A DNA stretch of 64,000 nt from Verrucomicrobiales bacterium (GTDB lineage: Bacteria > Verrucomicrobiota > Verrucomicrobiia > Verrucomicrobiales > DEV007), in NCBI GenBank assembly GCA_029213195.1, contig JARGNI010000015.1:1-64000 (forward strand), read 5' to 3'. Shown here one piece after another: positions 45,307 to 50,623 of the stretch (positions within the stretch are counted from its first letter, which is position 1; each line of letters starts with the position of its first letter). A program made the position numbers and the translations under genes. Under the pieces are notes generated by a model that saw only the letters and a program-made list of their open reading frames with translations, did no database searches and was not told the DNA's origin.

Positions 45307-46503
45307 TCAACGACGACGACGACCGGGAGGGCGTTTCCGGCGAAGCGGAGCGGCAGGTTTGTCGTCGAGGAGGGCCGTGTAGTTGTAGTCGAACCCGTCG
45401 ATCTTCCGACGCTCGATCTTCTGATCCACGTAGTGCTCAACTGCGGCGGCGTTCTCCAGTTCGTCGGCGGTCAGGATGGTGAAGGCATCTCCCTCCTGCT
45501 GGGCGCGACCGGTTCGACCGATTCGGTGGACGTAATCCTCAGGATTCTCGGGAACTCGGTAGTTGATGACGTGGGTCACACCGGAAATGTCGAGTCCGCG
45601 TGCCGCAATGTCGGTTGCGACAATGATGTTGAAGGTCCCATCGCGAAATCCCTGCAGTGCCTTGGTGCGGTCACTCTGTCGAATATCCGAGTGAAGGGCG
45701 GTCGGCTTCGTGCCTTCGATCTTCTGGATCTGCGCGAGGAGCGTGTCCGCTTCTTTCTTCGTTCTCGTGAAAATCATCATGCTGTCGAAGCCAGTTTGCT
45801 CGACGAGCTTGAGAAGGAGCTCGTCCCGCTGATCCATTCCGACCGGGTAGAAGGCATGGGAGACGGTTTCGGCAGGAGAGCGGCGTTCCCCGATTTCGAC
45901 TTCGACGGGATCCTTCAAGGCCCAGTTGGCCAGCGTCTGGATCGCTCCCGGCATGGTCGCGGAGAAAAAGAGCGTCTTTCGATGGCTCGGGCATCGATCG
46001 ATGATGCGCTTCACATCGGGGAGGAAACCCATATCGAGCATGCGATCGACCTCGTCGAGAACGAGATACTCGATCGAACTGAGATCGATGTTCCCTTTCT
46101 CCATGTGATCGAGAAGTCGACCTGGCGTGGCGATGATGACATCGGCCTGATTCTCCAGCGCTTCGATCTGGTGACCGTATCCGACCCCTCCGTGGAGCAG
46201 CATCACGTTGAGCGGCTTGTAGAAGGAAAAGAGGTTCATCTGCTCTTCGACCTGGGCGGCGAGCTCGCGGGTCGGTTCGAGGACGAGACACTGGGGTCGG
46301 TCCGACGGTCCGATTTTGGAAATGATGGGGAGAGAGAAGGCCGCTGTCTTTCCCGTTCCCGTTTGAGAGGCTCCGACGATGTCTTTCCCCTCGAGGGCAA
46401 CGGGGATGGCCTGGGCCTGGATCGGCGTCGGCTCTTCGTAGCCGGCTTTTTTCACCGCCCGCAGCACCGGTCCTGTAAGTCCTAGATCTTCAAAAGAAGG
46501 CAT
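45307..46503 (-). CDS. DEAD-box RNA helicase, RhlE-like
   Basis: A 398-aa ATP-dependent RNA helicase. Q motif: FEDLGLTGPVLRAVKKAGYEEPTPIQ. Motif I: ASQTGTGKT. Motif II reads DEVD instead of DEAD. Motif III: SAT. RNA-binding motifs: VLEPTRELA, ATPGRLLDHM. Motif V: VATDIAARGLDI. Motif VI: HRIGRTGR. The C-terminal tail is basic (RRKRPPGRRRR). RhlE-group helicases help ribosome assembly and RNA turnover, notably in cold. The ATG at 46503 precedes PSFEDLGL; the 9 extra upstream residues are unlikely. Confidence 0.94.
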   Translation of the reverse strand: MPSFEDLGLTGPVLRAVKKAGYEEPTPIQAQAIPVALEGKDIVGASQTGTGKTAAFSLPIISKIGPSDRPQCLVLEPTRELAAQVEEQMNLFSFYKPLNVMLLHGGVGYGHQIEALENQADVIIATPGRLLDHMEKGNIDLSSIEYLVLDEVDRMLDMGFLPDVKRIIDRCPSHRKTLFFSATMPGAIQTLANWALKDPVEVEIGERRSPAETVSHAFYPVGMDQRDELLLKLVEQTGFDSMMIFTRTKKEADTLLAQIQKIEGTKPTALHSDIRQSDRTKALQGFRDGTFNIIVATDIAARGLDISGVTHVINYRVPENPEDYVHRIGRTGRAQQEGDAFTILTADELENAAAVEHYVDQKIERRKIDGFDYNYTALLDDKPAAPLRRKRPPGRRRR

Positions 46504-46597
46504 TCGGGACAAAGGAGGCGAAGAATGCACCTTTCAAGAACAATTTGGATTAGTTTTCTCCTCACTCCTGCGAGGAACGAATCCAAAACCTCTCCCA

Positions 46598-47059
46598 TCA
46601 CTTCTTCTTTTTCTTCGTGGAGAAGTATTGATCGAGAGTGAGCTTTCCTCCTCCTCCGACAGCAAGCCCGAGTAAAATGAGAAGATAGAGAATCAAGGTT
46701 TGTGGAGAAAGAGCTTTCGAAATTTCCAGGGGAAGAAACAGGGCGCAGCCGATGAGGAGGAAGCCAATGAGTCCGTTCAACCGGGTGAAAAAGCCGAAGG
46801 TGATGCCGAGAAACGCAATACACAGGAAAAGAATCGAGACGACAGCAATCGCTCCGGGAAAAGGAAGCCCGAGGCTGTCGATCGACTGGACGAGAGACCA
46901 CTCCGCATTCTCCCAGAGATAGAGCCGGACGAGGTTGAGCTGATCGATCAGCTGGTAATAGAGAAAGGTAAGAGCCGCGAGGAGACGGATCACGAGAAGC
47001 CCCAGATCGGCGCTGTGTGGTTTGGCAGATTCGTCTTCGGGAAGAGGCTGAAATGGCAT
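46598..47059 (-). CDS. DoxX family membrane protein
   Basis: A 153-aa protein with four membrane helices (about 18-37, 58-78, 82-104, 112-132) and a DoxX layout: LGLLVIRLLAALTFLYYQLI, a loop with LPFPGAIAVVSILFLCIAFLGI, RLNGLIGFLLIGCALF and LYLLILLGLAVGGGGKLTLDQYF. It ends in a lysine run (STKKKKK). DoxX members form redox-linked membrane complexes in some bacteria; the role here is unknown. The longer frame to 47113 lacks a membrane-protein start, so the ATG at 47059 is used. It may be co-transcribed with the helicase gene (94 bp gap). Confidence 0.75.
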   Translation of the reverse strand: MPFQPLPEDESAKPHSADLGLLVIRLLAALTFLYYQLIDQLNLVRLYLWENAEWSLVQSIDSLGLPFPGAIAVVSILFLCIAFLGITFGFFTRLNGLIGFLLIGCALFLPLEISKALSPQTLILYLLILLGLAVGGGGKLTLDQYFSTKKKKK

Positions 47060-47137: not shown

Positions 47138-47380
47138 TTAGTTTCGCAGGTAGGTAAAGATCGTCTTGCGATCCGCCGGAGAGAAATTGCCGCGATAGAG
47201 ATGGACGGAACCAAAGTAGGAGTTCTTTCTTGCGGCGACGGGTTTGGGCACGTTGAGAAACCCGAAGTCGTATCCGTTCAAGGGAAGTCTCCCCTTCGCG
47301 ATACTGTTGACGAGCCCACTCGCCTTGAAGGACCCATCGGGGAGGCGGGCGAAGATCTGTTGTTTCCCCTTTTTCCCATC
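47138..47380 (-). pseudogene. C-terminal end of LamG-like domain beyond the in-frame TAG
   Basis: After the TAG at 47381-47383, the same frame continues for 80 sense codons to TAA at 47138. The translation (DGKKGKQQIFARLPDGSF, later FGFLNVPKPV and SYFGSVHLYRGNFSP then ADRKTIFTYLRN) is the expected end of a LamG/concanavalin-like domain. A single base change from TAC or TAT to TAG would explain it. It would be lost unless the stop is read through. Confidence 0.82.
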
Positions 47381-49219
47381 CTAGTGCAGGATGACATCGA
47401 CTTCGCGATTCGGAGGGATCGGAAGTTGGCAGGAGCTCTTGTTCTTCCCCTGCTCGCTGATGAGCATGAGCTTCCCGTTGAAGTGAGAGAAACGGAAATG
47501 GATCGGTCCCTTTTCTCCCTTGAGAAGAAACCTTCCGAGGTGACCTCCCATTTTCTGGTCGACCCGGATCGTCATCGCGAGGGCAAGCTGGTCGGCAATG
47601 AGGACTTCGTTCTGAACCACGGAGGAAGAAACCCCAACTTGCGTTCCAAAGGGAAATCGGATTCGATCCTTTCCTCCGGGACCCCGGATCAAATGCGGGC
47701 TGCGGTCCTGATTCGGTCGGGCGATGAGAAGGTGCTCCGGTGCCGCCGTCGAAACCCGGTTCTGGATGGCTCCAATGGGTTGGCCGGGCTGGGAGAGTCG
47801 CTTCCCGTTTGGGTCGAGTATGCCTCCGGCCAGCGGATACGAGGCGATCAGACGCGAGGCGAATGGAGGGTTCTCGGTTCCCTCGGGAGCGATCCGGGTG
47901 TTGGAGAGCAGCGGAGCCTTTTTCTCGATTTTCGGGGGCGGTGCGGAAGGGCGAGCCTTGTTGGGCTGCGATTTCGCCTTGGGTTGGGGGGGATCGGCTT
48001 TGGGTGGGTTCTCCGCAATTTTCTGCGGCGTGAGGGGAGTCGTTTTTTCCTTGCCGGAAAGCGATGCGATCACGATGCCTCCGATGACGGCCCCAGCGAC
48101 CACTCCAGCGATCAGGAGCTTCCGTGTGATCGGAGTTCGGTGAACGGGTTCGTAGCGCCGGGTCGATTCGGAACGCCCGGGAAGGGAGTTGGTGTAGAGT
48201 TGCGGTCCGGTTGCGATGCGTCGTTTGAAAGCCTTCGAGGTGGAGGCCGGATTTTTCTCCACGGGCTTGGTATGAAGCGGGCGAGCGACCTGGTGTTGGG
48301 TCGTTTCAAGGGTGACCTGTTTCTGAGTCAGCGGCGAAGCAGCAGCGACGGGGACGGCGATGGGAGTCTTCTCATGGGGTGGTTCTTCCTTGGCTTGTTC
48401 CTGAGCGCTTGAGAACGCTTCACGAGCCGCCATCGCGTTCGCGGGACGATCCTCCGTTTTCCTTGAGATCAGACTCATGACCCAGGCAGTGATGGCAGTG
48501 GGCAGGTCCGGTCTGAGTTCCGCGAGGGGAATGACCTTGTGCGAGAGATGATTCGTCATCGTCTCAGCTACGGAATCGCCCGAGAAGGGAGGGGTCTGGG
48601 TCAGGGCGAAGTAGTAGACGCAACCGAGCGAGTAGAGGTCGGTTCGCTGATCGAGAGGTTTCACCTCGACCTGTTCGGGAGCGATGTAGTCGATCGAACC
48701 GAGAAAGGATCCGCTCTGATCGAGCGTCTGGAGCGAAGGTTGCTGGCTGAATTTGGCGAGACCAAAATCGAGGAGCTTGACCTGGAATCGCCCCGAGGGC
48801 TGCCAGGTCATCATGATGTTGCTCGGCTTGATATCCCGGTGGAGGAGATTCATCTCCGAGGCACTGATCAGGGGATCGAGCGTTTGATCGACCAACTCGG
48901 CGAAATCTTCCTCGGAAAAGGCCTGGCGTTCGACCACCGCTTTGAGCGTATCGCCGACGACCAGTTCGAAGACGACATAGGGACCCTCTTCGTCCTCCGC
49001 AAATTCGTAGATTGAGACGACGTTGGGATGCTGAAACTGGGCGAGGGCTCGAGCCTCCTTTTCCAGCGAGGTCGTTACTGGTTCGTTCAGCTTGGTGTCC
49101 TCGAGAGGGAGGAGGCGTTTGATCGCCACGTCACGCTTGAGTCGGATGTCGAAGGCTTTGTAGACCGCTCCGACTCCTCCTCGACCAATTCGGCCCTTAA
49201 TTTCATAACGATCTGCCAT
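47381..49219 (-). CDS. Transmembrane Ser/Thr protein kinase with truncated LamG-like ectodomain
   Basis: A 612-aa receptor kinase. The kinase domain (1-285) has [40 protein letters not shown] and the region [15 protein letters not shown]. One membrane helix (about 366-387, [19 protein letters not shown]) follows a basic/Ser/Pro-rich linker. The outer part begins with Pro/Lys-rich sequence, then the first half of a LamG-like lectin fold ([36 protein letters not shown]). It stops at TAG in mid-domain; the rest lies in the same frame downstream. The ATG at 49219 is used. No sigma factor lies next to this kinase. Confidence 0.88.
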
Positions 49220-49348
49220 GGAATTCCCTGCATTAAGATAATGCATGAATCATAATTATCAAAATTTTCGTCATTTCGAGATTCTCGAATTCCCGTAGGA
49301 TCGTTTTGCCTAGATCGGGGGTGAGGGCTAGGATGGCCGAAATCAGGA

Positions 49349-50623
49349 ATGAAGAATCGATTCTACGAGGAGTTTGATGCGGAGCGACGCGAGAGCCGAC
49401 CAGGAGTTGTGCCCGGCGACTATCGCAGTCCTTTCCAGGTCGATCGCGATCGCATCATTCACACCTCGGCGTTCCGTCGTCTTCAGAACAAGACGCAGGT
49501 CTTCTTTTCCGGGGAATATGATTTCTACCGAACCCGGCTGACTCACTCCATCGAGGTCGCCCAGATCGGGCGAAGCATTTGTCATCGGCTCAATCAGACC
49601 TCTTCCCTGCTCGAAGAAGCTTTCTGGATCGATCCGGACCTGGTGGAAGCTGCCTGCCTCGCGCACGACATCGGACATCCCCCATTCGGTCATACCGGCG
49701 AGCGAACTCTCCATCGACTCATGAGACCCTACGGGGGATTCGAAGGGAATGCCCAGACTCTGCGTATCCTTGCGACGATTCTTTTCGGTCCGGATCGGGG
49801 GATGAATCCTACTCGGGCACTTCTCGATGGGGTGTTGAAATACAAGACTCTGTTTGGCGAAGTCCAAGGCCAGAAGAATCACTTTCTCTATCGGGAGCAG
49901 GGGGAGATCCTCCGTTTTGTCACGGCAAACCAGGAGTTTCCTACCGAATTCCCTCCTGGAAAAATACGGAACGGATTTCGGTCGGTGGAGTGCCAGGTCA
50001 TGGACTGGGCAGACGATACGGCCTACTCCCTGAATGATATCGCCGATGGGATTCAGGCAGGATTCATCACCGGTGAGAATCTCGAGAAGTGGGCGGAGGA
50101 AGAAGAGCTCACCGAGACCGAGTCCGGTTGGATCCACAAGCTTCACGAAGCGATCCGGCGTGGACGGGTCGAATCCACGGTGGGGAAAAAGATCGGCCGG
50201 TTTATTGCTGCCGTCAGCCTGAAGGAAAGGGGCGGCTTCCTGTCCTCAGAGACGAATCGCCATCGCTACGATATCGAGATCGACTCCGAAGTCCTCGAAG
50301 AGTGTGACCTCTACAAGCGGGTTTCTCTAGGCCTCGTGTTTCGAAGTCGGCAACTCCAACAACTCGACCGGAAATCCGATTTCATCCTCGAGCGACTCTT
50401 CGACGTCTTTGCCGAGCAATACATTGCTTCGGAAGCTCCGCCGCAGGGGCGATTTCAGCTCCTGTCCGACGAGGAGGAAGCGCTCGTCTTCCAGCAGCCG
50501 GACGAAGCCGGGCGTGCCCGCGTCATCTGCGATGTTCTGGCCAAGATGACCGACGGGATCGCCAGCCGGACCTACAAGCGCCTGTTCGACCCGGATTTCG
50601 GGTCCATCAACGACCTCATCTGA
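49349..50623 (+). CDS. dgt: Deoxyguanosinetriphosphate triphosphohydrolase-like HD protein
   Basis: A 424-aa HD-domain enzyme splitting dNTPs to deoxynucleoside and triphosphate. N-terminal motif VDRDRIIHTSAFRRLQNKTQVF is typical of Dgt. HD residues are in RLTHSIEVAQIGRSI and AACLAHDIGHPPFGHTGE. The regulatory half carries KYKTLFG and VMDWADDTAYSLNDI. The length falls in the shorter class (type 2/3), which often needs a dNTP activator. The next gene is convergent. A hairpin GATCCGA/TCGGATC follows the stop codon. Confidence 0.93.
   Translation: MKNRFYEEFDAERRESRPGVVPGDYRSPFQVDRDRIIHTSAFRRLQNKTQVFFSGEYDFYRTRLTHSIEVAQIGRSICHRLNQTSSLLEEAFWIDPDLVEAACLAHDIGHPPFGHTGERTLHRLMRPYGGFEGNAQTLRILATILFGPDRGMNPTRALLDGVLKYKTLFGEVQGQKNHFLYREQGEILRFVTANQEFPTEFPPGKIRNGFRSVECQVMDWADDTAYSLNDIADGIQAGFITGENLEKWAEEEELTETESGWIHKLHEAIRRGRVESTVGKKIGRFIAAVSLKERGGFLSSETNRHRYDIEIDSEVLEECDLYKRVSLGLVFRSRQLQQLDRKSDFILERLFDVFAEQYIASEAPPQGRFQLLSDEEEALVFQQPDEAGRARVICDVLAKMTDGIASRTYKRLFDPDFGSINDLI

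What the first reader, a model, noticed from the sequence alone, without database searches (positions are those of the whole stretch)
47381..47383. In-frame amber codon inside the LamG-like ectodomain of a second kinase
The frame continues for 80 codons past TAG and completes the lectin-like fold (DGKKGKQQIFARLPDG...VHLYRGNFSP). The residue expected is Tyr (TAC/TAT), one base from TAG. It could be a nonsense mutation, a sequencing error, or a stop that is read through.
Basis: partly seen in the sequence, partly recalled or inferred. Interest (0 to 1): 0.7.

Follow-up and report, generated by a model that had tools for sequence, protein, structure and literature searches.

The report
Recent nonsense mutation in sensor kinase
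A membrane-anchored protein kinase gene of a verrucomicrobial bacterium carries one premature stop codon where its relatives almost all have tryptophan; the same gene is broken or missing in several related species, so this looks like ordinary ongoing gene decay and not a new way of reading the genetic code.

Summary
On the minus strand a TAG (47383-47381) interrupts a 702-codon frame: Ser/Thr kinase, a membrane segment, then a concanavalin-like outer domain. The 80 codons after the TAG match relatives (tail-only HMM, E 3.2e-19) and end where they end. The expected residue is Trp, not Tyr: 15 of 16 other genus copies have TGG in that column.

Best reading: a recent nonsense mutation in a dispensable gene. 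Of 17 genus copies, 13 are intact, one is cut by a contig end and 3 are broken: this one; one with a frameshift plus a TAA at the adjacent codon; one with a TAG, a deletion and a frameshift. In six other genomes the flanking genes abut and the kinase is absent. Intact, broken and absent states interleave on a helicase tree.

Recoding gets no support: RF1 is present, none of 41 detected tRNAs reads UAG, and RNA around the stop folds no better than shuffles. The tail is not decayed, so the mutation is recent, or the stop is tolerated or decoded. No reads, RNA or peptides could be examined; assembly error and RNA editing are unlikely but not excluded.

The parts
47138..49246 (-). Whole kinase gene including the interrupted part; 621 codons, TAG, 80 codons, TAA. 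Likely true start is the ATG at 49219.
48400..49219 (-). Cytoplasmic Ser/Thr protein kinase domain, catalytic motifs present
   Evidence: Pfam Pkinase E 1.2e-45, residues 14-275; motif positions; 68-81% identity to the 13 relatives whose kinase part aligns in frame
48056..48121 (-). Probable single membrane-spanning segment [22 protein letters not shown]
   Evidence: position; hydrophobicity read by eye, no predictor run
47141..47851 (-). Concanavalin-like (LamG-like) outer domain, interrupted by the TAG
   Evidence: model m37d594f91c33, PDB fold matches, alignment A1
47381..47383 (-). Premature TAG at a column that is Trp (TGG) in 15 of 16 other genus copies
47141..47380 (-). 80-codon tail after the stop: last strands and terminal helix of the jelly roll
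   Evidence: tail-only HMM E 3.2e-19; secondary structure of the model
47377..47393 (.). Perfect inverted repeat CATCCT-AGTGC-AGGATG that overlaps the TAG; significance unknown
   Evidence: sequence; RNA folds of this area are not better than shuffles
46598..47059 (-). Downstream neighbour: small membrane-type protein (I called it DoxX-like by eye; no Pfam or NCBIfam match), used as a synteny marker
45307..46530 (-). DEAD-box RNA helicase, synteny marker and tree gene
   Evidence: Pfam DEAD E 4.2e-48
49349..50623 (+). dGTP triphosphohydrolase family gene, divergent upstream neighbour, synteny marker
   Evidence: TIGR01353 303.7 bits, cut-off 152.35

Best explanation
The gene encodes a membrane-anchored Ser/Thr kinase with a fast-evolving lectin-like outer domain. 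A recent point mutation turned a nearly invariant Trp codon (TGG in relatives) into TAG. Ribosomes stop there, so the protein made would be kinase, membrane segment and an unfinished outer domain lacking its last strands and helix; that domain probably cannot fold, and the receptor is probably non-functional or blind to its signal. The gene is dispensable in this genus: it has been broken or removed repeatedly at the same chromosomal place, and this copy is at the first step of that decay. Shown here: the TAG, the Trp column, the intact tail, the broken and missing copies in other genomes. Inferred: that the stop terminates translation, that the truncated protein does not work, and that the direction of change is loss.
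For: 15 of 16 other genus copies have TGG in the column. Of 17 genus copies, 13 are intact, 1 (G001) is cut by a contig end, 3 are broken: G000; G012 with a frameshift between kinase and outer domain plus TAA one codon before the Trp; G022 with TAG in the kinase, a deletion removing the kinase end and membrane segment, and a frameshift. In 6 of 28 genomes with the downstream neighbour, the dGTPase gene abuts it (128-502 bp) with no kinase between; in 15 of 28 the kinase or its outer domain is there. Close sisters differ in state: G006 intact/G022 broken (support 100/100), G014 intact/G012 broken (98/91), G031 intact/G013 absent (100/99); at least 5 presence/absence changes on the tree with doubtful absences left out, 7 with them. 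RF1 passes its curated cut-off; 41 of 41 detected tRNA genes have other anticodons than CTA. TAG ends 18 of 49 ORFs of a mechanical ORF map of the window, some of them spurious.
Against: The tail shows no decay: its identity to relatives equals that of the part before the stop (0.282 against 0.280; ratio range in 16 other copies 0.90-1.17). That fits a very recent mutation but also a stop that is read through. Two of the three broken copies carry their outer-domain stop at adjacent codons; the chance of that, given two transition-type stops in this domain, is about 3% (after the fact). In G012 the tail is also no more diverged from its sister than the part before the stop (61% against 60%, dN 0.30 against 0.31). 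The tree cannot tell gain from loss, and half of its inner branches (12 of 24) are unresolved.
Confidence: 0.8

Rival explanations
1. Base-calling, assembly or strain-mixture artefact: the genome has no stop there, or only a minority strain has one.
For: The genome is a draft of 115 contigs, and the named relatives are metagenome-assembled. The codon differs from the relatives' by a single base. No reads were available.
Against: Consensus looks good: the same genome holds uninterrupted frames of 18,544 and 16,801 codons, and 0 of the 150 best-scoring LamG_3 matches listed in the genus (of 587 counted) have inner stops, a list biased to good copies. None of the 16 kinase matches of the own genome has an inner stop. 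Independent lesions in two other genomes make a true lesion plausible.
Confidence: 0.1
2. Tolerated truncation: the stop is real and terminates translation, but the kinase plus a partial outer domain still works or is constitutively on, so the truncation is neutral or selected.
For: Kinase motifs are intact and its kinase domain is as similar to relatives as they are to each other (68-81%). The outer domain evolves much faster than the kinase, and G012 also has a stop at this point.
Against: G012 also carries a frameshift before the membrane segment and G022 is broken within the kinase, which speaks for whole-gene loss. The stop removes several core strands and the final helix of the model.
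Confidence: 0.07
3. Recoding: the TAG is decoded by read-through, or the mRNA is edited A-to-I so that UAG becomes a Trp codon, giving the residue that relatives encode.
For: The tail is undecayed. Editing of the A would give exactly the relatives' Trp. Fungi correct UAG to UGG in the kinase PUK1 and some 70 further genes (PMC11156358, passages). Cytidine/adenosine deaminase-family genes exist here (3 matches to PF00383; which one is TadA was not tested). The context CUAGGAU fits 5 of 7 positions of the S. pyogenes motif YUAMGRA (PMC11472039, passages).
Against: No CTA tRNA among 41, RF1 present. The base after the A is G, not the C of UACG nor the A/C of UAMG, so neither known bacterial motif is met. 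RNA z-scores around the stop are -0.25, 1.29 and 0.54. No other copy has TAG at this column, and PMC11472039 says that the significance of stop-codon editing in bacteria is unclear.
Confidence: 0.03

Closest known systems
Recent bacterial pseudogenes with a single nonsense mutation
   Same: One in-frame stop in an otherwise full-length, alignable frame; other genomes of the genus have lost the gene. Widespread gene decay in prokaryotes is reported (PMC522871, start of abstract in a listing only).
   Different: Nothing essential; loss of function and fixation in the population are not shown.
Bacterial transmembrane Ser/Thr kinases (Pkinase, PF00069) with C-terminal sensor domains
   Same: Kinase domain well above Pfam's cut-off, a membrane-type segment, then a C-terminal lectin-like domain.
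   Different: The outer domain matches no Pfam family at E<=1; this copy is truncated within it.
PUK1 of Fusarium graminearum, UAG-to-UGG editing (PMC11156358, passages read)
   Same: A kinase gene with an in-frame UAG that an A-to-I edit would turn into Trp.
   Different: That is a fungus with an ADAT-based, stage-specific system; here there is no conserved stop, no known bacterial editing motif and no RNA evidence.

Membership tests
Ser/Thr protein kinase (PF00069) | Match to the kinase profile with catalytic motifs | tested here: met
   E 1.2e-45, 156.4 bits, cut-off 31.7; motifs by position
LamG / concanavalin-like domain | Match to a curated sequence family | tested here: not met
   0 Pfam families at E<=1 for the ectodomain
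LamG / concanavalin-like domain | Jelly-roll fold | tested here: met
   Model pLDDT 79.1 from 3 sequences; 368 PDB matches at E<=0.001; the listed ones are clostridial neurotoxin binding domains and complexes, and legume seed lectins, 8-13% identity, query TM 0.37-0.59. Fold class only; no toxin relationship is implied.
Recent pseudogene | Disabling lesion relative to intact relatives in the same genus | tested here: met
   TAG against 13 intact full-length frames
Recent pseudogene | Relaxed selection after the lesion | tested here: inconclusive
   Tail identity equals the part before the stop; no close sister species of G000 was available for dN/dS
Recent pseudogene | No full-length product | not testable with these tools
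   Needs proteomics or a reporter
Amber suppression or pyrrolysine decoding | tRNA with anticodon CTA | tested here: not met
   0 of 41 tRNA genes detected in the 95%-complete genome
TAG reassigned as a sense codon | Loss of RF1 and TAG not used as terminator | tested here: not met
   prfA 474.1 bits, cut-off 423.25; TAG ends 18 of 49 mechanically chosen ORFs in the window
TadA-type A-to-I mRNA editing | UACG (or UAMG) core motif | tested here: not met
   Site reads CUAGGAU; motifs from passages of PMC12214031 and PMC11472039
TadA-type A-to-I mRNA editing | A/G mixture in RNA reads | not testable with these tools
   No RNA data

The most novel reading that the evidence does not exclude
The UAG is edited A-to-I (or read through with Trp) under some condition, so that the outer domain of this sensor kinase is completed only when needed: a bacterial counterpart of fungal UAG-to-UGG editing of PUK1. 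The adjacent-codon stop in G012 would be a second, convergent switch at the same structural point.
Probability: 0.02. Interest if true: 0.85.

Novelty: new member of a known kind. Interest (0 to 1): 0.15.

Why it matters
It is mainly a caution: an in-frame stop in one genome is best read against its relatives. Here these change the expected residue from Tyr to Trp and show that the whole gene is on its way out in several lineages. The locus is a small, clean case of repeated loss of a sensor kinase at one conserved chromosomal place, with intermediates still visible. If the stop were decoded or edited instead, it would be the first step to a switchable bacterial receptor, but nothing here points to that strongly.

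Tried and rejected
Tyr as the lost residue: rejected, Trp in 15 of 16 other genus copies.

Amber suppressor tRNA, pyrrolysine or TAG reassignment: rejected on the tRNA set and RF1. The tRNA search scored 150 of 159 first-look candidates and the genome is 95% complete, so a missed tRNA is possible.

Structure-stimulated read-through: three folds gave z-scores of -0.25, 1.29 and 0.54.

Shared stop in the family: rejected, no other copy has TAG at this column; G012 has TAA one codon earlier. I looked at that near-coincidence as a possible sign of a programmed site. The computed chance is about 3%, given two transition-type stops in the domain, and it is after the fact. G012's sister has CAG there, two changes away from TAA, so the transition-only model is approximate for it.

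dN/dS for the window gene: synonymous sites are saturated at these distances, so no test was possible; only the G012/G014 pair was close enough.

Copies not counted among the 17: the alignment search also found G029:C77, second copies in G023:C38 and G004:C264, and weaker matches in other genera; none has inner stops. I left them out as divergent.

Kinase identity of 74% averaged includes the frameshifted G012 row and a two-column G022 row; I quote only the 13 usable rows.

Literature on LamG kinases in Verrucomicrobia: the one search with these three words found 0 papers; a general pseudogene search gave a listing only.

Full report
What is there. On the minus strand, a frame that starts at 49246 or, more likely, 49219 encodes a Ser/Thr kinase domain (Pfam Pkinase, E 1.2e-45), a hydrophobic segment (48121-48056, read by eye) and an outer domain. 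A TAG at 47383-47381 interrupts it after codon 621; 80 codons follow before TAA at 47140-47138. Pfam has no family for the outer domain at E<=1. A model of the domain, read through with Trp and built from three sequences, has mean pLDDT 79.1 and matches concanavalin-like jelly rolls at 8-13% identity in the 50 rows shown. In that model the stop falls in the strand 169-176 (residue 175) and removes the strands 181-187, 193-195, 207-220 and 229-238 and the helix 243-254.

The frame after the stop is real coding sequence. A profile made from the relatives' tails without the window finds it at E 3.2e-19, the only hit at E<=1 among 1,095 segments. It ends at the place where relatives end.

The expected residue is Trp. 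A search of 95 genomes around the window's own found the outer domain in 17 genomes of the genus, the window's included, and weakly in two genomes of other genera. In the alignment, 15 of the 16 other genus copies have TGG in the TAG column and one (G023) has Ile. The two copies from other genera have Trp and Arg.

The gene is being lost in this genus. Of the 17 copies, 13 are full-length and uninterrupted, one (G001) is cut by a contig end, and three are broken. G012 has a frameshift between the kinase and the outer domain, and a TAA one codon before the conserved Trp. G022 has a TAG in the kinase, a deletion that takes the end of the kinase and the membrane segment, and a frameshift in the outer domain. 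I used the downstream neighbour as a landmark: 28 of 33 genus genomes have it. In 15 of these 28 the kinase or its outer domain lies next to it, in 6 the dGTPase gene that normally lies beyond the kinase follows after 128-502 bp, and in 7 neither was seen within the stretch held; two of those 7 (G016, G023) have the kinase gene on another contig.

A tree of the neighbouring DEAD-box helicase for 27 genomes puts intact copies beside broken or absent ones: G006/G022 (100/100), G014/G012 (98/91), G031/G013 (100/99), G028/G002 (95/92, absence in G002 less sure) and G007/G030 (87/74). The fewest changes between present and absent are 7 for all 27 genomes and 5 without the four doubtful absences; between intact and lost, 8. 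For these labels G001 counted as intact. Twelve of 24 inner branches are unresolved, one row (G004) is very long, and such counts cannot tell gain from loss. Broken copies at the same place make loss the likelier direction.

Timing. The tail has not decayed: its identity to relatives is 0.282 against 0.280 for the part before the stop, and the ratio in the 16 other copies ranges from 0.90 to 1.17. In the G012/G014 pair the tail (49 of 80 identical) and the part before the stop (95 of 158) are also alike. So the lesions are recent, or the stop costs little, or it is decoded.

Is it decoded? The genome has RF1 (474.1 bits, cut-off 423.25). None of 41 detected tRNA genes has anticodon CTA. RNA folds around the stop are no better than shuffles. 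TAG ends 18 of 49 ORFs chosen mechanically in the window, some of them spurious. A-to-I editing would turn UAG into a Trp codon, which is exactly what relatives have, and fungi do this in the kinase PUK1 (PMC11156358, passages). Known bacterial sites need UACG (PMC12214031, passages) or, in S. pyogenes, UAMG (PMC11472039, passages); this site is UAGG. Three deaminase-family genes are present, but I did not test which is TadA. The reading remains open at about 2%.

Is it an artefact? Reads were not available. The genome holds uninterrupted frames of 18,544 and 16,801 codons, and 0 of the 150 listed LamG_3 matches in the genus, the best of 587, have inner stops. Relatives of a paralogous kinase's outer domain have inner stops in 1 of 19 genomes (G002, 3 TGA and 1 TAG). 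So an inner stop is uncommon in such domains, and an error at this one base is possible but not likely.

An oddity that I report against the simple reading: the window's stop and G012's stop fall in adjacent codons. Given two transition-type stops somewhere in this domain, the chance is about 3%. The column before the Trp is often Gln, so the pair is a natural target; I regard this as coincidence.

Verdict. Ordinary: a recent nonsense mutation in a sensor kinase that the genus loses repeatedly. Confidence 0.8.

Noticed in passing
G000:C57:133860-185267 (another contig of the same genome): Uninterrupted open frames of 18,544 and 16,801 codons that hold LamG_3 domains: giant genes.
   Followed up: no
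L096 (G000:C75:3300-7400, contig of 7,442 bases): Six tRNA genes (Arg-TCT, Gln-CTG, Gln-TTG, Glu-TTC, Thr-TGT, Leu-TAG) on one small contig, as in a phage or plasmid tRNA array.
   Followed up: no
L092 and the other tRNA loci of G000: A tRNA-Leu with anticodon AAG is present, while no tRNA-Arg with ACG was among the 41 tRNA genes found. If true, TadA's main substrate here would be unusual; a gap in the draft genome is the simpler reason.
   Followed up: no
L019 (G012:C651) and L028/L025 (G022:C101): Two further broken copies of the same kinase gene: frameshift plus TAA, and TAG plus deletion plus frameshift.
   Followed up: yes
G002:C281:1494-1922: A relative of the paralogous LamG-type kinase outer domain with 3 TGA and 1 TAG inside.
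   Followed up: no
window 47377-47393: Perfect 6-bp inverted repeat with a 5-base loop that overlaps the TAG; with the relatives' Trp codon the stem would be one pair shorter.
   Followed up: partly
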